Of a stretch of DNA of 64,000 nt, positions 19,522 through 29,192 are shown in pieces. The notes beneath the pieces were generated by a model, which made no database searches, was not told where the DNA came from, and saw nothing but the letters and a program-made list of their open reading frames with translations. Position 1 is the first letter of the stretch; the number at the start of each line of letters is the position of its first letter. A program made the position numbers and the translations under genes. This DNA comes from an uncultured Vibrio sp. (lineage in GTDB: Bacteria; Pseudomonadota; Gammaproteobacteria; Enterobacterales; Vibrionaceae). The stretch is taken from assembly GCF_963675395.1 (NCBI RefSeq), contig NZ_OY776223.1, positions 2,790,001 to 2,854,000 on the forward strand, given 5' to 3'.

Positions 19522-21540
19522 CTAAAGCTCAGTAATCGCTTTACCCTTACGCAGTTTACGCACCCACATCCGGCTTGGATGCAATTCAGCTAACACATCC
19601 ACAGGCAACGGCAGAGGGTCACCACAAATTTGTGAAGCCAGCAGTTCAGCCATCAGTGGTGCAGAGCTCAATCCGCGAGAACCCAGCCCTAAAAAGCAGA
19701 ATAGGTTAGGGAACTGATGAATTGCTTCTACTTCCTCTTCCTTCTGGTTTTGCAAGTTTGCGTATTGTGTTTTAACTGACTCAAAATCACTTATATTACC
19801 AATAAATGGCAGATGATCACGACTCACACAACGAATACCTTGGCGCGAGAAGTTACCTGTTGTGTCGACTTCGCTTACCCATGCCTGATTGGGGATGCAT
19901 TTGATGAGCTTGTCTGCGTTGTCTTGTTGCGCTGCGCTATCAAATTCGAAATCCAAATGGCTGCGATCGTAACTCGCGCCAATACACAGATGTTGATTGT
20001 TTGGGTTTACTGGCGTCATGTAGCCGTCGTAGCAAAGCACCGTTTTCAGCTTAGATAGCGTTTCTGTTGCCGGTGCGTGGCTCACCTGACCTTTCACTTG
20101 TCCCATCGGCAGATCGGCGGTTTGACTCAAAGTTTGGAATTCATGGCCATTGGCGATCACGACGGCTGAGTGCTCAAAGGTTTGACCATTTGATGTTAGT
20201 GTCCAGCATTGGGTCTCGTCGCTCCAAGTGAGCGCGTCGATTTTGTGTTCAAATTTGGCTTCGAAGTTGGCATTTTTTTCAAGCTGTGCGACCAGCCCAC
20301 GAGTTAACTCTGCAGGACAAAGCCAACCTCCCCAAGGGTAGTGCACTGAAGGCATATCGATAGGTAAGCCGATGGTTTCAGCTGTTTCTTGTGCTGAAAG
20401 CTTCTGGATGAGTTCGGGGGTGAAGTTGCCTTCTAAAATTCTTTCTAACTTGGCCGTGGATTTTTCATCCCACATTAGTTGGGTTACGCCACACCAGTCA
20501 TGGTCAAAACTGATCTCTTCCGCCGCTTGCTCGACAAACTGACGCGCAAATAGAAATGCCGGAGCAAACACACGCGATACGCCGGTATGTGGACCATTAA
20601 GTAGTGGATAAACAGCGCCTTGGCGGTTGCCCGATGCACCTTCTGCTGGTCGAGCATCTTGGCAATACAGTGTGACATTTTGGCCACGACGACTCAATGT
20701 TTTTGCCAGGGCTGCGCTGGCTATACCGCCACCAACGATGGCAATTGAATCAGACTTGCTTGCCGCCGTTCTGTTAAACCAGGGTAAGTGATTTGAGTGC
20801 ATTTGTCGCTGTTCCATTGAGCCAGCAATCATTTCACGCTTGGTACCAAAACCTTTTACTTTCGTCATATTAAAGCCGGCTTCGATCAATCCACGACGTA
20901 CAAACCCGGCGGCGGTGAACGTGGCGACAGTACAACCTTGCTTTGCCAGTTTGGCCATGCCGTTGAACAAATTCTGATTCCACATCTCTGGATTTTTACT
21001 TGGTGCAAAACCGTCAAGGAACCAGGCATCAACTAAGCCTGCTTCACCGTAAGGCACTTGTGGCATGCAGTCTTTGATGTCACCAAACCAAAGGTCGAGG
21101 GTGATTGCGCCATCTTCTAATACGATTCGGTGGCACTCTGGTACGGTGGCGGGGTAGTGCTTTTGCAGCTTCTCTGCGTACTCCGCCAGCTCTGGCCACG
21201 TTTGATGGGCTTTTTTAAGATCAGCTCGGCTGAGAGGATATTTTTCAAAGCTGACAAAATGCAGCTCTTTTAATGTCGCATCAGGATTTTCACGACGGAA
21301 TTCATTAAACCACTGCCATACCGCCAGGAAGTTTAATCCAGTGCCAAATCCGGTTTCACCGATAATAAAGCGCCTTTGGTCAAATTCCTGCCATCTTTCT
21401 GGGAGATGATTTTTTTTGAGGAAAACGTAGCGTGTCTCTTCAAGACCGTTTACGTTAGAGAAGTAAACATCATCAAATTGGTCAGAAACTGGCGTACCAG
21501 ATTCGTTCCAACCCAGTTCTGCGTTTTTTATTGAAGTCAT
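19522..21540 (-). CDS. mnmC: MnmC, bifunctional tRNA wobble-uridine modification enzyme
   Basis: MnmC completes the mnm5(s)2U34 modification of tRNA. The C-terminal FAD domain turns cmnm5 into nm5 and the N-terminal domain methylates it. With the start at ATG 21540 ([15 protein letters not shown]) the protein is 672 residues, the usual bifunctional size. The methyltransferase domain (about 1-240) has '[15 protein letters not shown]' and '[15 protein letters not shown]'. The FAD-binding motif '[21 protein letters not shown]' region is near residue 270. It is divergent from fabB, as in E. coli. Confidence 0.96.
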
Positions 21541-21602
21541 ATTGGTTGTAATTTTGTGATTTGGCGCGGTAACAATAGGACGATTGTACGAATTTATAGG
21601 AA

Positions 21603-21619
21603 AGCTGACCACTTTTGTT
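21603..21619 (+). promoter_or_regulatory. Possible FadR site upstream of fabB
   Basis: AGCTGACCACTTTTGTT shares 11 of 17 positions with the E. coli fabA FadR site AACTGATCGGACTTGTT and lies about 50 bases before the fabB start. FadR activates fabB in E. coli. The match is weak, so this is a candidate only. Confidence 0.3.
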
Positions 21620-21669
21620 GACTATCTTAGTTATTATCTAGCAGATTTTTGAATTATAGGAATGTCATA

Positions 21670-22881
21670 ATGAAACGAGTCGTAATCACCGGTATGGGTA
21701 TTGTTTCAAGTATCGGTAACAACGTCGAAGAAGTTCTAGCGTCTCTTAAAGCGGGCAAATCTGGCATCACTGCATCTGAGCAGTTCAAAGAACACGGTCT
21801 TCGTTCGCAAGTATGGGGTGATCTAAAAATCAACCCAGCGGAGCACATCGACCGTAAACAGATGCGCTTTATGGGTGATGCGGCTGCTTATGCATACCTA
21901 TCAATGCAGCAGGCAATTGAAGACGCTGGCCTAACCGACGATCAAGTTTCTAACGATCGCACTGGTATCGTTGCGGGTTCTGGAGGTGCTTCTGCGTTAA
22001 ACCAAACAATCGCAACAGATACTATGCGTGAGAAAGGTGTGAAGCGTATTGGTCCATATATGGTTCCACGTACTATGTCTTCTACCGTTTCTGCTTGTCT
22101 TGCTACACCGTTTAAAATTCGTGGTGTGAACTACACCATGAGTTCAGCTTGTGCGACGTCTGCACACTGTATCGGTCACGCGATGGAGCTTATTCAGCTT
22201 GGCAAACAAGACATCGTATTTGCAGGTGGTGGTGAAGAGCTAGATTGGTCTCAAACGATGATGTTTGATGCCATGGGCGCACTGTCTACCAAGTACAACG
22301 ACACACCAGAAAAAGCGTCTCGTACTTACGATGCAGACCGTGACGGTTTCGTTATCTCTGGTGGAGGCGGTATGCTGGTTGTCGAAGAGCTAGAACATGC
22401 TCTAGCACGTGGCGCGAAAATCTACGGTGAGATCGTAGGTTACGGTGCGACTTCTGACGGCTACGACATGGTAGCGCCATCAGGTGAAGGTGCGGTACGT
22501 TGTATGAAGATGGCAATGCAAGGCGTTGACCACATCGATTACATCAACACTCACGGTACTTCTACTCCTGTAGGTGATGTGAAAGAGCTTGGCGCGATTC
22601 AAGAGCTATTTGGTGAAAACAGCCCTGCAATCTCTGCGACAAAAGCGATGACTGGTCACGCACTAGGTGCGGCTGGTGTTCACGAAGCGATTTACTCAAC
22701 GCTAATGCTAGACAACCACTTCATTGCTCCAAGCATCAACATTGAAAACTTGGATGAAGCAGCGAAAGGTCTGGATATCGTGACTGAAACTCGTGATGCA
22801 GAGATCGATACCGTAATGTCAAACAGCTTTGGCTTTGGCGGTACTAACGCAACGCTAGTTATCAAGAAATACCAAGGTTAG
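21670..22881 (+). CDS. fabB: FabB, beta-ketoacyl-ACP synthase I
   Basis: FabB elongates acyl-ACP with malonyl-ACP and is essential for unsaturated fatty acid synthesis. The protein is 403 residues from ATG 21670 ([10 protein letters not shown]), which has AGGAA 8 bases upstream; the frame opens 7 codons earlier. The catalytic triad is visible: Cys161 in '[11 protein letters not shown]', one His in '[11 protein letters not shown]' and the other in 'TGHALGAAG'. The glycine-rich end '[13 protein letters not shown]' is typical of KAS enzymes. The 3' UTR is long and structured (see FarS). Gene order mnmC-fabB is conserved. Confidence 0.97.
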
Positions 22882-22944
22882 TCAGTACCCAAGCTAATCG
22901 AAATTGTTGGGGTAAATCACCATACGGTGTGAGCTCCAACAAGC

Positions 22945-23059
22945 AGTTTCCAGAGCTTGATCAGTCTAACTGGTCGAACAGACGCAGACTTTATCCCATG
23001 GAGAGCGGGATAAGATCCTTTTGTTCTGGAACTTTGCCCGGCTTAATGCCGGGCTTTTT
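22945..23059 (+). ncRNA. farS: Candidate FarS sRNA in the fabB 3' UTR
   Basis: In Vibrio cholerae the Hfq-dependent sRNA FarS is cut by RNase E from the 3' UTR of fabB mRNA and represses fadE genes, linking FadR-driven synthesis to repression of beta-oxidation. The same position here holds no gene but has a 7-bp hairpin (TTATCCC 22991-22997 / GGGATAA 23007-23013) and a strong terminator with a T run, the layout of an Hfq-binding 3'-derived sRNA. The 5' end is a guess; I assign identity by position and structure, not by sequence comparison. Confidence 0.6.
23036..23059 (+). terminator. Terminator of fabB/FarS
   Basis: GCCCGGC / GCCGGGC stem with a TTAAT loop followed by TTTTTATTTT. Confidence 0.92.
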
Positions 23060-23110
23060 ATTTTGTGTAATAAGAGCCATATCTCACCGAGTTATCAGCA
23101 AATTTCAGGC

Positions 23111-24934
23111 TCACGCCAAGCGGGGGCCCAATTGCAGATATTCAAGATTAATGTAATCCTGACCATATTTTTCAGACTGATCAATAGCCAGCGGCAACTC
23201 GCTGATCTCCAGTGTATATTCACCGGCTTGGGGAAAATACATCTCGCCTAAGCGACTGTGTACGTTTTTCCACGGTACCTGAGCATCGTTAGCATCTGTT
23301 TTGTCGAGGTTTAGCTCAAACGGCCAGGACTGATCTGCACAACTTACGCGACCAGTTTTACCGTTGTGCACCCATAACGGATCTTTATGATGCATGGTTT
23401 CCAGCGAAACCAGATCTAAGGCGAACCAGCCTGGGCGCTGGATTTGGAAGGTCCAGCGGTAATTGAGTTTGACAGGATCAAAATGAACGATATTGAGTGT
23501 ATCCAGGCGCACTTTGGCCAGGCGGTCCTGATGTACGATAGGGTTAATATCCAACTCTCCTTCATACTCCAGCTCGATCACTAGAGGCATCAGATCATAA
23601 TTATGCTCGAGTTGTAGGTTGAGGGTGCTAGCAGTAATGCCCGTATCCGTGTCTGTTTTCTGCAAATAGGAAACATGCCCACTGATTTGATTATCGAGCA
23701 ATCGTGCCTGTTTGATTCGATTGTTGACGCTATGTAAGCAGATAACGTTTTGTTCAGGCTGACGCTGCACATGCAGATACAACTTACTGGTGTCTGGTTT
23801 ATGCGTTACCACACCCCAGTTGAAACCGGTTTGCAGCGGGGTAGCTTCGGTATCGATCACCGCTTCCTGGTTTACCTGCATCCATTGGCCTATCTCACTA
23901 AGTAACCGTACAAGGGGATGTGGAATACGCCCGTTATGATCCAGGGTTATATTGAGTAGAAAGTTGCCGCCCCGACTGACTACGGAACATAGCTGGTTTA
24001 TCAGATCCTTACTGGATTTGGTATTATTGTCGTTGTGGCTATAACCCCAGTTGTCGTTACTGGTAGCAATGCCTTCCCAGTAATATGGTTTGATATAAAG
24101 TGGCTCCATGTAGTTGTCGTGACCGGTTTTGATATCCCAATCCAACAGGTACTCACATTCCGGTGCCGTAACCCTGCTGTTAACCACAGCATCAGGTTGT
24201 TTTTTCCGGATTAATGCCATCAGGTCGCCGATCCGACGTACGTGGTCAGCTTCTTCTTGTACATCAAAGCCCCCCATATCAAACCACAGAGAACACAGAT
24301 CTCCGTACTTTTCGAGCAACTCATTAACCTGAGGTACACACTTGTTATTCCAGTATTCCTGATAGTTAGCCTGGGCTGGGTTGAAATCCCAGTCGTTGGG
24401 GGCTTTCGTCACCGCATTTTCGTTCTCCCAATCGATCACATGTGAATAATAGAGGCCAAAATCCAAGTCTTTATGACAACAGCTGTGACTGAGTTCAGCG
24501 ATCGGATCGCGTTTAAACGGTGTAGCGTCCGTGATGTTGAATGGATGTGATGGGCTGTGATACATGGCAAACCCGTCGTGATGTTTGGCAGTGACAACCA
24601 GATAATTCATTCCGGCTGCTTTGGCCAATGCCGTTACCTGATCGGCATCAAACTCGGCAGGGTTAAAGCTAGAAGCGTACCCTTTATAGTCATGCATAGG
24701 AATACGGGCAAAGTGCGGCAGCCATTCGCTAATGATGTCGTAGTATTGTCCCTGATAATACCCGGCCAGATCCCGGTGGCAATAAAGTCCCCAGTGGATA
24801 AACATACCAAAGGTATTTTTTTTCCAACGGTTCAGTCCCTGCTTACTGACGCCAGTAAAGGCATTGCGATTGTCCGGTTGGCAAGTAGTCTGGCGGCTTA
24901 TTCCTGTCAGCTCACCTGCTGTGGGCTTGGTCAT
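23111..24934 (-). CDS. GH29-type alpha-L-fucosidase, cytoplasmic
   Basis: A 607-residue glycoside hydrolase family 29 protein. The (beta/alpha)8 catalytic domain covers about residues 30-340. Landmarks are 'FGMFIHWGLYCHRDL' near residue 43, 'VVTAKHHDGFAMYHS' near residue 113, and the nucleophile Asp219 in 'SLWFDMGGF'. A beta-sandwich C-terminal part follows. It should remove terminal alpha-L-fucose from oligosaccharides. No signal peptide is present, so it acts on imported sugars. The open frame starts 12 codons earlier, but ATG 24934 has a GGTG ribosome site 6 bases before it. It is divergent from the DeoR regulator and convergent with fabB, and is absent from the conserved fabB-pdxB order, so it belongs to an inserted islet. 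A perfect palindrome lies just upstream. Confidence 0.88.
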   Translation of the reverse strand: MTKPTAGELTGISRQTTCQPDNRNAFTGVSKQGLNRWKKNTFGMFIHWGLYCHRDLAGYYQGQYYDIISEWLPHFARIPMHDYKGYASSFNPAEFDADQVTALAKAAGMNYLVVTAKHHDGFAMYHSPSHPFNITDATPFKRDPIAELSHSCCHKDLDFGLYYSHVIDWENENAVTKAPNDWDFNPAQANYQEYWNNKCVPQVNELLEKYGDLCSLWFDMGGFDVQEEADHVRRIGDLMALIRKKQPDAVVNSRVTAPECEYLLDWDIKTGHDNYMEPLYIKPYYWEGIATSNDNWGYSHNDNNTKSSKDLINQLCSVVSRGGNFLLNITLDHNGRIPHPLVRLLSEIGQWMQVNQEAVIDTEATPLQTGFNWGVVTHKPDTSKLYLHVQRQPEQNVICLHSVNNRIKQARLLDNQISGHVSYLQKTDTDTGITASTLNLQLEHNYDLMPLVIELEYEGELDINPIVHQDRLAKVRLDTLNIVHFDPVKLNYRWTFQIQRPGWFALDLVSLETMHHKDPLWVHNGKTGRVSCADQSWPFELNLDKTDANDAQVPWKNVHSRLGEMYFPQAGEYTLEISELPLAIDQSEKYGQDYINLEYLQLGPRLA

Positions 24935-24945
24935 GATACACCTAT

Positions 24946-24978
24946 CAATTATTATGAAATCACTTTTCATAATAATTG
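24946..24978. promoter_or_regulatory. Perfect palindrome (14-bp arms) before the fucosidase gene, probable operator
   Basis: CAATTATTATGAAA (24946-24959) and its exact complement TTTCATAATAATTG (24965-24978) flank TCACT. It ends 11 bases from the fucosidase start codon, so a bound repressor would block initiation. It cannot be an intrinsic terminator here (AT-rich, no downstream gene end). The right-hand 14 bases CTTTTCATAATAAT occur again at 42361-42374 upstream of the PL8 lyase. Confidence 0.7.
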
Positions 24979-25233
24979 GTTTGTCTGGTTCAACTGAGTT
25001 AGATGCATTTAGATGTGAGCTTTCTCACGCTATCTTTGGTTCGTTGCTGTAAATACGGTCTTGTCTAATGCACATTCATGCCCGTTTCAACTGTCACGAC
25101 TTAAAATCAGTCATTAATTCATTGTAATCCTTCAACCCAAATGCCCACTTTACCCGGACTAGCGTGATATTAATCGCACAAACAGTTTGAACGTGTGCAG
25201 TGTTTACGATTTTCAATTTAACATCTAATTTAT

Positions 25234-25248
25234 TGAAATGACGTTTCA
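25234..25248 (+). promoter_or_regulatory. TGAAA-N5-TTTCA inverted repeat before deoR-type gene
   Basis: TGAAATGACGTTTCA lies 19-33 bases before the regulator start codon, a normal place for an autoregulatory operator. Related sequences (GAAACGATGTTTC at 29291-29303; GTGAAACGT at 42493-42501) lie upstream of the solute-binding protein and the PL8 lyase. Confidence 0.45.
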
Positions 25249-25266
25249 CTAAGTGATATTTAGAGC

Positions 25267-26028
25267 ATGAACAACAGACAAAATTACATTGTTGATCAAG
25301 TGCGAAAGCAAGGTGAGGTTAAGGTTGAGGAATTAGCTGGCGAGTATGGAGTCTCTGTCGAGACCATACGTCGAGATCTGAATACATTAGCAAAACACAA
25401 CCTGCTATGTCGTATCCATGGTGGTGCAGTCAGCCTACAGACACGTGACATAGGCCAGACATTCTCCTCAAGACAGAAGTTAAATGCACAAGCTAAGCAT
25501 GTGATGGCAAAACATGCACAGCACTACCTTATCGAGCGAAGCGTCATTGGAATGGATGCCAGTTCTACCTGTCTGCATGTCGCCCGACAGATGTCGGATA
25601 TGATCTGTACCTTGGTGACCAATTCCACTGGCATAATGCAAAGCGTTGCAACAAAAGAACACGTGTCAGTCATTGCGACCGGAGGCAGTTTTTCCGCCAA
25701 ATACTCTGCCTTTCACGGCCCCATTGCCGAACAGGCGTTGTCCCGGCTGAATCTGGATGTGGTTTTACTGTCCTGCTGTGGTGTCGATGAAAATGGAGGC
25801 GTTTGGGAGTCTAACGAACTGAATGCCTCTATCAAGCGTCGCATGATGGGTTGTGCGGCTCAGGTGGTACTGCTTGCCGATGCTAGCAAAATAGGCAAGA
25901 AGGGACTAATCAAGATTTGTGATGCTTCAGAGATAGATATCTTTATTAGTGATAGCCCGGTAAACAGTAAGTTACGGCAGTACCTTAAGAAAAGCCGGAT
26001 TTTGATTATTGATGGACAAGCCCACTGA
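25267..26028 (+). CDS. DeoR-family sugar-responsive transcriptional regulator (FucR/GlpR-like)
   Basis: A 253-residue DeoR-family repressor. Residues 1-57 form the winged helix-turn-helix with the family signature 'VKVEELAGEYGVSVETIRRDLNTL' and 'RIHGGAV'. The C-terminal sugar-phosphate sensor domain shows 'VIGMDASSTCLHVA', 'LVTNSTGIMQSVA', 'ATGGSFSAKYSAFHGPIAEQAL' and 'LLADASKIGKKG'. Members sense phosphorylated sugars; E. coli FucR responds to fuculose-1-phosphate. It is divergent from the fucosidase and 17 bases upstream of the GH43-like gene, so it is the likely local regulator. The ribosome site is weak. The ligand is inferred from the neighbouring fucose genes. Confidence 0.9.
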   Translation: MNNRQNYIVDQVRKQGEVKVEELAGEYGVSVETIRRDLNTLAKHNLLCRIHGGAVSLQTRDIGQTFSSRQKLNAQAKHVMAKHAQHYLIERSVIGMDASSTCLHVARQMSDMICTLVTNSTGIMQSVATKEHVSVIATGGSFSAKYSAFHGPIAEQALSRLNLDVVLLSCCGVDENGGVWESNELNASIKRRMMGCAAQVVLLADASKIGKKGLIKICDASEIDIFISDSPVNSKLRQYLKKSRILIIDGQAH

Positions 26029-26045
26029 CATAAAACAAACACCGA

Positions 26046-27089
26046 ATGCAGAATGATATGACAAACAGTATTTTAGAGAGAATAGGCGAGCTGGACCCGG
26101 CTAGCGCCTTTTCTATGGATGACTATTGGGTATGGGGCAGTTCCGTAGTCAAAGGCGACGACGGCAAATACCATATGTTCGCCTCCCGTTGGAGCAAGAA
26201 AAAGCCGTTTTTCACCACCTGGATCACGGATAGTGAGATTGTACACGCCGTGGCGGACCGTGCCGACGGTACTTATGTTTTCTCCGATGTCGCCCTAGGT
26301 AAGCGGGGCTCCCAGTTTTGGGACGGACAGTCGGCGCATAACCCCAAAATATTCCGCCATAAGGGGAAGTATGTTCTCTTTTATATGGGCTCTACTCACC
26401 CGTTTGAGCCGTTCCCGGACGGCGATGATCCCGATGTGACGGGCAAGCACTGTGTGGTGGCGCGCAGCAACAAGAGAGTCGGCGTAGCGGTGGCCGACAG
26501 CCCCTACGGTCCGTGGCAAAGGTTTGACTGCCCAATTTTGCCTACCAAGCCAAACACCTTTTATAGTTTCCTAACTTCCAACCCGTCGCCGATCATTCAC
26601 GAGGACGGCAGCGTGCTGCTGATGTTTAAGGCCCGTGCCTATGATGGGGACGTCCATGGCAGGATGACGATCGGAATCGCCAAGGCCGACCATTATCTAG
26701 GACCATACAGGGTCATCAACTCTGAGCCGATCTTTGGCCCGGATAAGGTGGGTGAAATTGAAGATCCATCCATCTGGCTGGATAACGACGGCTATCACTT
26801 GCTAGCGAAAGATATGGGCAGCTCGATTTGTGGTGAGCACCACGCGGGCATTTTGTGCCATTCGGACAATGGCCTCGATTGGCGTCTCGATGAAGATCCT
26901 CTGGCCTATTCCAAAAAGGTACAGTGGCGGGACGGTAGCGAGGGTGTTCTGGGGCAAATGGAAAGACCTTTCCCGTTAGTGGAGGATGGAGTGGTGACTA
27001 CTCTATTTTTTGCAGCGATGGACGGACCCGGAGGCTTTAATAACGGCACAAGATCCTGGAACCAGGCTGTTCCCTTAAAGAAAAAGTGA
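26046..27089 (+). CDS. Five-bladed beta-propeller glycosidase (GH43/GH117-like)
   Basis: A 347-residue protein with the repeated beta-propeller pattern of GH43, GH117 and relatives: 'DDYWVWGSSVVKGDDGKYHMFASRW', 'WDGQSAHNPKIFRHKGKYVLFYMG', 'SNPSPIIHEDGSVLLMFKA', 'GEIEDPSIWLDNDGYHLLAKD' and 'ERPFPLVEDG', read here as blade starts. The 'EDP.IW' motif is typical of these folds. No signal peptide is present, so it is cytoplasmic. It probably cleaves a terminal sugar of an imported oligosaccharide, but I cannot name the linkage. It shares an operon with the DeoR regulator and precedes the fucU relic. Codon use is visibly richer in G+C than the core genes, suggesting separate acquisition. The start could be ATG 26046 or 26058. 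Confidence 0.75.
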   Translation: MQNDMTNSILERIGELDPASAFSMDDYWVWGSSVVKGDDGKYHMFASRWSKKKPFFTTWITDSEIVHAVADRADGTYVFSDVALGKRGSQFWDGQSAHNPKIFRHKGKYVLFYMGSTHPFEPFPDGDDPDVTGKHCVVARSNKRVGVAVADSPYGPWQRFDCPILPTKPNTFYSFLTSNPSPIIHEDGSVLLMFKARAYDGDVHGRMTIGIAKADHYLGPYRVINSEPIFGPDKVGEIEDPSIWLDNDGYHLLAKDMGSSICGEHHAGILCHSDNGLDWRLDEDPLAYSKKVQWRDGSEGVLGQMERPFPLVEDGVVTTLFFAAMDGPGGFNNGTRSWNQAVPLKKK

Positions 27090-27096
27090 GTAATCG

Positions 27097-27208
27097 ATGT
27101 TAAAGGGCATTCGTCCGGAGATCAGCCCCCTCGCGTCTTGCCGCTTTGGTGGAAATGGGCCATGACGACGAAATCTGATTGGCAGATGCATACTTTCCCG
27201 CACATTCC
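27097..27208 (+). pseudogene. fucU: Degenerate fragment of an L-fucose mutarotase gene (FucU/RbsD family)
   Basis: Starting 7 bases after the GH43-like stop, ATG 27097 encodes MLKGIRPEISP, the start of FucU/RbsD proteins. After a run of five C (27126-27130) the match moves to the +1 frame, where 27131-27205 reads SRLAALVEMGHDDEI, then a TGA stop (27176-27178), then LADAYFPAH. That is the conserved 'EMGHGDEIV-ADAYFPAH' core of the family, whose catalytic His lies in EMGH. The similarity then ends, about 37 codons into a gene of normally 140. A frameshift, a stop and truncation make it non-functional. FucU interconverts fucose anomers for uptake and catabolism, so this ties the islet to L-fucose. 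Confidence 0.85.
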
Positions 27209-27230
27209 TTATTGAATTGGTCTCACATAC

Positions 27231-27257
27231 AAAAAAACCGGCATGGCCGGTTTTTTT
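27231..27257. terminator. Bidirectional terminator of the islet
   Basis: A CCGGC / GCCGG stem with an ATG loop, flanked by seven A and seven T, lies between the convergent GH43-like and solute-binding protein genes. Confidence 0.9.
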
Positions 27258-27272
27258 CATACTTTAGTTATA

Positions 27273-29192
27273 TTATTTTGACTCTTTCCACAACTGCGAA
27301 GTACGCATAGGGCCAGGAGAGCCGATGGAGTAAGATTCAGGCACCACAGTATCGCTATTACGTACATTGTTTTTGATTACAACGCCTTCATCCAAAGCAG
27401 ATACTGTACCGATGGTGTAGAAGTTCTCTTTAGAGATCTGGATGATCTCTTCCATCAGCTTGTTTTGCTCGTCCTGAGAAGCCGTGTCCCCCATTTTTCT
27501 GTATAGCTCTATTTGCTTCTTCACATGTGCGGGTGGCTCAACCGCAGTTGCATGGTTTTTGTCGCTCATCCAGTAGTAGTAACCAACACCCCAGGTAGAG
27601 GCAGGGTTTTGCACCGCATAGTTCGCGAACGTATCCATTATGCCAATACCGCCATCGCCGCCAGCCGGCAATAGGTCGTAGTTGTTTTCGAGACGTTGTG
27701 TTTGCATATATGAACCTTCAACAACGCGGATATCCAGGAAGATACCCACGTCGCGCCAATCATTTTTAACCAGCTCAAGGATGTCAGTTTGCTCACCTAC
27801 AAAAGCTTGATTCATCAAGGCCTCAATACGAATACGCTTACCTGTTTTGTCCAAGCGATAGCCGTCTTCGTCGCGTTTGCTCAAGCCGATCGCGTCTAGC
27901 ATTTTATTGGCTTTAGCAGGGGCATACTCAGTAAATTGAGTGGCGAACTCTTCATCATAGAAAGCGGAACCTTCAGACGGTGCCGCCTGATAAGGTTTTA
28001 CTACGCCCGAATACATGGTTTCGCTGATTGCATCACGGTCAATAGCGTGAGACAAAGCGATGCGGAAATCTTTATTTCTAAACAGTTCGCGCTTAACCAG
28101 ATCTTTATGCGTTTGGTTAAGAGGTAGCACTAGGGCGTTCATGCTGGCGCTAGGGCGGAAATCGTATTTGTAGTCACCCTTTTCTTCATTTTCCATCATC
28201 ATGGAGCGATAGGTTGATTTACCGATATGGCGTGTTTGGAAGTCGGTCTCACCGGCCGCTGCACGTAAGATCATCTCTTCTTTGTTCTCGGAGTAGGAGA
28301 AGAATACACGGTCCAAATATGGCAGCTGGTTGCCGGCTGTATCCACCATCCAGTAGTAAGGGTTACGTTCCCAAACTGCGTACTGAGTTTCCGGTCCTGG
28401 GATTACTTTCACTTTCCAGGCGTTAACTGTTGGGCGCTCAGGGTTGGTGTAGTGCTCAAAGAAGTAGTGAGCGCGGCACTTGGTCTGGAAGTATTGCTGC
28501 CAGCTATCAAAGCCTTCTTCTTTGGCTCTTGCTTCGGCCTTATTGTTGAATTCGGGCAGGAACTGTTGGCAATAATGTTTAGGGAATTGAACGATGTTGG
28601 AGCCGTCGGTGTTGGCCAGCTTACGGATGAACATACCGTCTGGTTTAGACAGAGTGAACTTGATAGTGTTGGCGTTGAGCACTTCTGCTTTGGCGTCGCC
28701 TACATTACGGGCAAAAAACGGACGGTTACCAGACCAGTCGTCACGGTTCATCAGATCGATATAAAAGGCGATATCTTCAGCGGTAAATGGGTGGCCATCA
28801 GACCACTTCACGCCTTTGCGCAGCGTGATGGTGTATTCGGTCAGCTCTTTGTTCACCGTGTAGCTAGTCGCTAGGTTTGGTTCAATGCCAGTGTAAGTGC
28901 GGTTGAAGTTGAACAGGTTGTCATATTTGAGCATTCGCATACGGTGGCCATTATCTCTCTTCATACCCAGAAGTCGTAATTCCCCACCGTATTGACCGAT
29001 AGATTCAATGGGTTCAACTACCAACGGGTTTTCTGGCAGCCGTTTTTCCACTGCTGGCAACGTTCCGCTGTTAACGAGTTCGGCTAATTGTGGGGCTTCA
29101 TTGTATGTAGCTGCTTGACTAGCACAGGAGATTGCGAGCGTAACACTTGCTGCAATTTGGGTAACAAACAGGGGGAGGTTCGTATTTTTCAC
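27273..29192 (-). CDS. Family 5 extracellular solute-binding protein, orphan ABC component
   Basis: A 639-residue periplasmic binding protein of ABC family 5 (peptide/nickel/oligosaccharide class). A signal peptide covers about residues 1-27 (ending SCASQA|A). The family core is visible as 'LRKGVKWSDGHPFTAEDIAFYIDLM' and 'LSHAIDRDAISETMYSG'. It is longer than typical OppA (about 540). Several large family-5 proteins of this type bind oligosaccharides, which fits the glycosidases nearby. The start is GTG 29192 with AGGTG upstream. No permease or ATPase gene is in the islet, so it must use a transporter encoded elsewhere or be a leftover. Confidence 0.87.
   Translation of the reverse strand: MKNTNLPLFVTQIAASVTLAISCASQAATYNEAPQLAELVNSGTLPAVEKRLPENPLVVEPIESIGQYGGELRLLGMKRDNGHRMRMLKYDNLFNFNRTYTGIEPNLATSYTVNKELTEYTITLRKGVKWSDGHPFTAEDIAFYIDLMNRDDWSGNRPFFARNVGDAKAEVLNANTIKFTLSKPDGMFIRKLANTDGSNIVQFPKHYCQQFLPEFNNKAEARAKEEGFDSWQQYFQTKCRAHYFFEHYTNPERPTVNAWKVKVIPGPETQYAVWERNPYYWMVDTAGNQLPYLDRVFFSYSENKEEMILRAAAGETDFQTRHIGKSTYRSMMMENEEKGDYKYDFRPSASMNALVLPLNQTHKDLVKRELFRNKDFRIALSHAIDRDAISETMYSGVVKPYQAAPSEGSAFYDEEFATQFTEYAPAKANKMLDAIGLSKRDEDGYRLDKTGKRIRIEALMNQAFVGEQTDILELVKNDWRDVGIFLDIRVVEGSYMQTQRLENNYDLLPAGGDGGIGIMDTFANYAVQNPASTWGVGYYYWMSDKNHATAVEPPAHVKKQIELYRKMGDTASQDEQNKLMEEIIQISKENFYTIGTVSALDEGVVIKNNVRNSDTVVPESYSIGSPGPMRTSQLWKESK

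What the first reader, a model, noticed from the sequence alone, without database searches (positions are those of the whole stretch)
27097..27208. Relic of an L-fucose mutarotase gene (fucU) at the end of the glycosidase operon
Frame 1 gives MLKGIRPEISP; after a C5 run, the +1 frame gives SRLAALVEMGHDDEI, a TGA stop, and LADAYFPAH. These join into the conserved core of FucU/RbsD proteins. The gene is frameshifted, has a stop codon and is cut off after about 37 codons. It gives an independent, sequence-level clue that the islet handled L-fucose and has since decayed.
Basis: partly seen in the sequence, partly recalled or inferred. Interest (0 to 1): 0.75.

Follow-up and report, generated by a model that had tools for sequence, protein, structure and literature searches.

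The report
Dead remnant of a fucose gene
This is the broken front quarter of a gene for handling the sugar L-fucose in a marine Vibrio; two related genomes still carry the whole gene in the same gene neighbourhood, so it is an ordinary gene relic, useful mainly because it shows a sugar-use cluster being trimmed step by step.

Summary
Window 27097-27210 is the 5' end (about 38 of 144 codons) of an L-fucose mutarotase gene, fucU. It has a frame change at a C5 run and a TGA, and compared with the sister genome G040 about 0.77 kb is missing: the other three quarters of fucU plus the remains of fucA. The frame-2 piece alone matches NCBI's L-fucose mutarotase model (E 5e-7), not D-ribose pyranase. 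Two related genomes have an intact fucU right after the same GH43-like gene.

In Vibrio albus the islet reads DeoR, fucI, fucK, GH43-like, fucU, fucA. G040 and the window lack fucI-fucK at the same joint; G040 has a gutted fucA; the window has only the fucU stub.

One correction: the islet is not dead. Its GH29, GH43-like, DeoR and SBP genes are open and conserved (dN/dS 0.06-0.13 against G040), and contig C1 of the same genome carries open fucI-fucK-fucU-fucA-fucO, though without fucP and with fucR split over two frames. Best reading: loss of the islet's catabolic half in place, probably because it became redundant (inferred). Bolder reading: the two replicons now share one pathway. An ordinary pseudogene with a well-resolved history.

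The parts
27097..27210 (+). fucU relic: 5' end (about 38 of 144 codons) of an L-fucose mutarotase gene, with a frame change and an in-frame stop
27126..27130 (+). C5 run where the reading frame changes
   Evidence: sequence; alignment with two intact relatives
27176..27178 (+). TGA stop in the relic's second frame
   Evidence: '1 TGA'
27211..27215 (.). deletion joint: five bases where G040 has 771 (rest of fucU, gutted fucA, spacer)
   Evidence: 766 gap columns
27231..27257 (.). A-run, GC-rich hairpin, T-run: probable two-way terminator between the convergent GH43-like and SBP genes
   Evidence: read in the sequence, kept in G040; NOT listed by the terminator scan
26046..27089 (+). GH43-like putative glycosidase, open; no signal peptide seen by eye
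   Evidence: (PF04616 25.8 bits, under the 32.2 cut-off); dN/dS 0.06 against G040
26053..26054 (+). joint where V. albus has 3,429 bp with fucI and fucK; the same joint in G040 (L010:10086)
25267..26028 (+). DeoR-family regulator, relative of the L-fucose operon activator
   Evidence: NF007720 E 6.3e-49, 166.5 bits, under its 259-bit cut-off; NF041397 scores higher, also under its cut-off
23111..24970 (-). alpha-L-fucosidase (GH29), open, divergent from the DeoR operon
   Evidence: PF01120 E 4.3e-72; dN/dS 0.11 against G040
27273..29192 (-). family 5 solute-binding protein, convergent with the operon; beside the islet in V. albus too

Best explanation
The stretch is a non-functional remnant of the islet's own fucU, left by decay in place. 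SHOWN: V. albus still has the islet as DeoR - fucI - fucK - GH43-like - fucU - fucA with an SBP and a (broken) GH29 at its sides; G040 and the window lack fucI-fucK at the same joint; G040 keeps an intact fucU and a gutted fucA; in the window the fucU head has a frame change and a stop, and the rest of fucU and any fucA are gone. SHOWN: contig C1 of the same genome has fucI, fucK, fucU, fucA and fucO open. INFERRED: fucI-fucK were lost, not gained by V. albus; the islet's catabolic genes became redundant beside the C1 set and were lost, while fucosidase, GH43-like enzyme, regulator and SBP stayed because they still free L-fucose from imported oligosaccharides inside the cell, for the C1 enzymes to degrade. 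The confidence given is for the decay in place; the redundancy step alone I put at about 0.55.
For: Family match of the piece. Intact orthologue in the same place: G040 (L010:11130-11564) and V. albus (L050:10046-10480), both over the L-fucose mutarotase cut-off. Colinear DNA. Relaxed constraint: against V. albus the relic has 7 non-synonymous and 6 synonymous differences (codon positions 1/6/6), against G040 7 and 7; the GH43-like gene next door against V. albus has 10 and 56 (7/3/56), Fisher p = 0.005; the intact G040 fucU head against V. albus has 0 and 5. Shared fucI-fucK joint. Second fuc set. Gene order fucI-fucK-fucU-fucA in 13 of the 18 places fetched (V. albus included, where the GH43-like gene sits between fucK and fucU); in the other 5 fucU lies without fucI or fucA.
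Against: The redundancy step is not proved. G040 has the same fucI-fucK joint, no fucI anywhere and other genes at the place of the C1 set, so that loss may be older than any second set. The C1 operon is itself damaged: no FucP found in the genome and fucR matching in two frames, so its activity is not certain. No operator-like word shared by the islet and C1 promoter regions beyond shuffled expectation. The loss-not-gain polarity of fucI-fucK rests on the usual gene order only. The C5 run and the joints were not checked in reads.
Confidence: 0.88

Rival explanations
1. Sequencing or assembly error in a working gene: the C5 run and the stop are errors.
For: Homopolymer runs are common error sites (general knowledge); reads are not held.
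Against: The rest of the gene is absent; the head has two separate lesions; its non-synonymous share is high.
Confidence: 0.03
2. The piece is a partial copy of the contig C1 fucU, pasted after the glycosidase gene, not decay in place.
For: Islet and C1 FucU are relatives, 73% identical.
Against: DNA is colinear with the islet fucU of G040 and V. albus from the upstream gene on, 12.4% and 11.5% different over 113 sites; the match to islet FucU is better than to C1 FucU (71% over 31 residues, E 1.2e-8, against 67% over 27, E 3.6e-6).
Confidence: 0.02
3. The stub has kept a function: a leader peptide, an RNA element, or a product made by frameshifting and read-through.
For: The start codon and the stretch before it are largely kept.
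Against: Only about 38 of 144 codons remain, so no decoding trick can yield a mutarotase; differences fall 1/6/6 over codon positions, no sign of protein constraint. RNA function was not tested.
Confidence: 0.03
4. Pseudogene as stated, but lost through abandonment of L-fucose use, not redundancy (an alternative to the inferred step of the best explanation only).
For: G040 has the same fucI-fucK joint and no fucI in the genome; the window's C1 operon lacks fucP and its fucR is split over two frames.
Against: C1 fucI, fucK, fucU, fucA and fucO are open and each passes an NCBI equivalog cut-off (fucO that of TIGR02638, not that of NF007911); islet GH29 and GH43-like have dN/dS 0.11 and 0.06 against G040. 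V. albus, with fucI-fucK-fucU-fucA complete, also has no FucP hit, so a missing FucP need not mean disuse.
Confidence: 0.3

Closest known systems
L-fucose mutarotase FucU (NCBIfam NF011949 / PRK15420; Pfam PF05025 RbsD_FucU)
   Same: The relic's frame-2 piece matches positions 10-38 of 140 of the model; the intact orthologues of G040 and V. albus are full members.
   Different: About three quarters of the gene are gone and the frame is broken; not a working member.
fuc operon of Vibrio and E. coli (fucR, fucP, fucI, fucK, fucU, fucA, fucO)
   Same: The V. albus islet and the contig C1 operon carry the enzymes in the order I-K-U-A.
   Different: The V. albus islet has a GH43-like gene between fucK and fucU, no fucO match in the 19 kb looked at, and sits with GH29 and an SBP; the window copy has lost I, K, U and A.
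Fucose operon variants of E. coli (PMC10221146, passages read)
   Same: Natural operon variants without fucP or without fucU are tabled there, and a fucU deletion had a longer lag on fucose.
   Different: There one operon varies; here two loci on two contigs each lack what the other has.

Membership tests
L-fucose mutarotase FucU (NF011949) | Sequence match to the family model | tested here: met
   Frame-2 piece, X at stops: E 5.3e-7, 29.7 bits; the 141-bit full-length cut-off is not reached, as expected of a fragment
L-fucose mutarotase FucU (NF011949) | Full-length open frame of about 140 codons | tested here: not met
   About 38 codons in two frames with a stop
L-fucose mutarotase FucU (NF011949) | fuc operon context | tested here: met
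   Through relatives: the same gene follows fucI, fucK and GH43-like and precedes fucA in V. albus
L-fucose mutarotase FucU (NF011949) | Mutarotase activity | not testable with these tools
   Not expected of a fragment lacking model positions 39-140 (inference)
D-ribose pyranase RbsD (NF008761) | Sequence match to the family model | tested here: not met
   No RbsD hit for the piece in a scan to E 10; a second RbsD/FucU-family gene lies at C1:905724, beside genes that look like a ribose uptake cluster (by eye)
Pseudogene | Disabling lesions plus loss of constraint relative to an intact orthologue | tested here: met
   Frame change, TGA, truncation; 7 non-synonymous and 6 synonymous against 10 and 56 next door (small numbers)

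The most novel reading that the evidence does not exclude
The two chromosomes have undergone complementary loss and now share one pathway: the islet on contig C2 kept uptake (SBP), regulation (DeoR) and release of fucose inside the cell (GH29, GH43-like) but lost fucI, fucK, fucU and fucA, while the operon on contig C1 kept those enzymes but lost the fucP permease and an intact fucR. L-fucose would then be reachable mainly as fucosylated oligosaccharide, and the islet regulator might have taken over control of the C1 operon.
Probability: 0.25. Interest if true: 0.5.

Novelty: new member of a known kind. Interest (0 to 1): 0.25.

Why it matters
As a gene relic it is ordinary. Its use is as a marker. 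V. albus (complete fucI-fucK-fucU-fucA, broken fucosidase), G040 (no fucI-fucK, gutted fucA, fucU intact) and the window (fucU stub) show three different states in the loss of a carbohydrate islet whose glycosidase genes two of the three keep open. It also warns against calling an islet dead because one of its genes is: the same genome holds a second fuc operon that may complete it.

Tried and rejected
Considered and rejected: RbsD instead of FucU (no RbsD hit); copy pasted from the contig C1 fucU; chance match; islet carried on known plasmids (1 of 72,556 records matches, Persicobacter psychrovividus, 15% of the query at 66.8%, under a glycoside hydrolase gene only); a shared operator between islet and C1 operon (0 shared 12-mers with at most one mismatch upstream of fucI and 1 upstream of fucR, means of 40 simple shuffles 0.8 and 1.3); G040 using L-fucose through its FucP-family permease (its neighbours are a xylulokinase-like FGGY kinase under its cut-off and a DeoC-like aldolase, so it looks like another sugar's cluster).

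Withdrawn while checking: I had read the 37 bases before the joint at 26053 as a stub of fucI. They match the V. albus stretch at the end of DeoR and before the part of the fucI frame that the FucI models match (model match starts at residue 27-28 of that frame), so they are no evidence on whether fucI-fucK were lost or gained.

Weak points: the genome search holds one genome per species, so strain variation and reads were not seen. The DeoR-GH43-fucU segment is mosaic, so the order of the deletions along the species tree is uncertain. dN/dS against G040 is 0.01 for fabB and asd and 0.09 for mnmC, so the islet genes (0.06-0.13) are constrained but not tightly; GH29 and SBP have low dS (0.06 and 0.10), and the SBP against V. 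albus has 92 non-synonymous and 170 synonymous differences, weaker constraint. The GH43-like genus search covered 99 genomes, 5 with a match; the family search 329, 8 with a match at E 1e-20. Literature: searches (20 of 127 papers listed; 20 of 31; 10 of 29; 10 of 1,359), seen as listings and abstract beginnings; PMC10221146 read in passages. Nothing in those listings looked like this islet; that does not show that it is unpublished.

Full report
What was checked. The finding names a relic of fucU at 27097-27208. The sequence is as described: ATG at 27097, eleven residues in frame 1, a C5 run at 27126-27130, then a +1 frame with a TGA at 27176-27178. Homology continues to 27210.

Identity. With the frames kept apart, the second-frame piece (X at its stops) matches one NCBIfam family in a scan to E 10: L-fucose mutarotase, E 5.3e-7, model positions 10-38 of 140; D-ribose pyranase is not hit. 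A whole-genome search with Pfam RbsD_FucU gives two intact genes on contig C1 over the cut-off and this spot on C2 at 22.9 bits, under it. The G040 islet FucU searched over 227 genomes of the genus gives 109 with a match at E 0.001 or better; 23 of 227 have one at 61% identity or more, and most of the rest are matches of 20-30 bits at about 25% identity, probably RbsD; the window spot is hit at E 1.4e-7.

Organism. The genus is Vibrio by inference: G100, scored as same genus, has the islet on a contig of 215,817 bases, and the named record of Vibrio albus E4404 (NZ_QFWT01000009.1) has the same length and the same islet. The window lies on the 3.19 Mb contig C2 of a 4.77 Mb genome; contig C1 has 1.57 Mb and is presumably the second chromosome. 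No call named the species.

The islet in relatives. Of 329 genomes of the family, three (G000, G100, G040) hold the GH43-like gene at near full score; five more match weakly. In V. albus the order is DeoR, fucI, fucK, GH43-like, fucU, fucA, with GH29 divergent on one side and the SBP convergent on the other; fucI, fucK, fucU and fucA each pass an NCBI cut-off. Its GH29 is broken: residues 122-269 of the window protein are missing and the two parts lie in different frames. In G040 the islet sits between fabB and pdxB as in the window; fucI and fucK are absent at the same joint (26053 in the window, 10086 in L010), fucU is intact, and fucA has lost about 386 bp. G040 has no fucI match in its genome. 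In the window the GH43-like gene is open and followed by the fucU stub; where G040 has 771 bp (rest of fucU, gutted fucA, spacer) the window has five bases, and no fucA match is left. A hairpin with A- and T-runs beyond the joint is kept in both, though the terminator scan did not list it.

Loss of constraint. Against V. albus the stub has 7 non-synonymous and 6 synonymous differences, 1/6/6 over codon positions (against G040 7 and 7); the GH43-like gene next door has 10 and 56, 7/3/56, Fisher p = 0.005; the intact G040 fucU head has 0 and 5. The numbers are small but fit a gene out of use. Between window and G040 dN/dS is 0.06 for the GH43-like gene, 0.11 for GH29, 0.13 for the SBP and 0.11 for DeoR, beside 0.09 for mnmC and 0.01 for fabB and asd. 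These genes are under constraint; that of the SBP is weaker when measured against V. albus (92 non-synonymous, 170 synonymous).

The rest of the pathway. Contig C1 of the same genome carries fucI, fucK, fucU, fucA and fucO in a row, each over an NCBI equivalog cut-off. In three related operons whose open frames were listed in full (L062, L063, L066) a 436-residue gene lies between fucR and fucI; the L062 one is FucP by NCBIfam. In the window genome that gene is missing, no FucP is found in the genome, and fucR matches in two frames. V. albus has no FucP hit either; G040 has one, in what looks like another sugar's cluster. At the place of the C1 operon G040 has other genes.

How it most likely works. 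The stub itself most likely does nothing. The islet it closes may still work as a fucoside-cleaving module inside the cell: by eye neither glycosidase has a signal peptide and the SBP has one, and 6 of 10 non-Vibrio loci with a relative of the GH43-like protein also have a GH29 gene; the one whose neighbours were scanned has GH29, sulfatases and GH97 (L052). Freed L-fucose would go to the contig C1 enzymes; that step is inferred. In E. coli a fucU deletion lengthens the lag on L-fucose, and natural operons without fucP or fucU are tabled (PMC10221146, passages), so a mutarotase copy is an easy gene to lose.

Verdict. The claim that the islet has decayed needs narrowing to its catabolic genes. 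As a kind of thing it is known; the three-state series and the possible split of one pathway over two replicons give it modest interest.

Noticed in passing
window 26046-27089; L051-L060: The GH43-like protein is under Pfam's GH43 cut-off and has no NCBIfam family; its best solved relatives by sequence include 3,6-anhydro-alpha-L-galactosidases (E about 4e-6 and weaker; family GH117 is recalled, not from a call). Relatives at 52-56% identity in 10 non-Vibrio loci have a GH29 gene nearby in 6 of 10: a possible uncharacterised partner of fucosidases.
   Followed up: partly
window 21200-28800: Mosaic divergence. Window-G040 DNA differs by 0.2-4.5% per 400 bases over 21201-24800 and 1.0-2.2% over 27201-28800, but 6.2-11.2% over 24801-27200 (DeoR, GH43-like, fucU); V. 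albus-specific changes are few in 25208-27210 and many in the flanks. This suggests recombination in and around the islet.
   Followed up: partly
L015:11960-12860 (contig C1 of the window genome): The fuc operon on contig C1 lacks the permease gene present between fucR and fucI in L062, L063 and L066, and its fucR matches in two frames near the C-terminal end.
   Followed up: partly
L050:3040-4498 (V. albus): The V. albus islet has a broken GH29 gene (about 0.45 kb missing, alignment ends overlapping by 8 bases) while its fucI, fucK, fucU and fucA are complete.
   Followed up: partly
L065:7885-8316 and L070:7312-7827: Two genomes of the genus carry fucU outside a fuc operon, beside what look by eye like periplasmic sugar-binding, permease and ABC ATPase genes: fucU in another uptake cluster.
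   Followed up: no
window 27273-29192 and L050:11604-13520: The family 5 solute-binding protein stays with the islet although the islet sits at different places (between fabB and pdxB in window and G040; fabB and pdxB do not match in the 19 kb fetched around it in V. albus). No permease partner was looked for.
   Followed up: no
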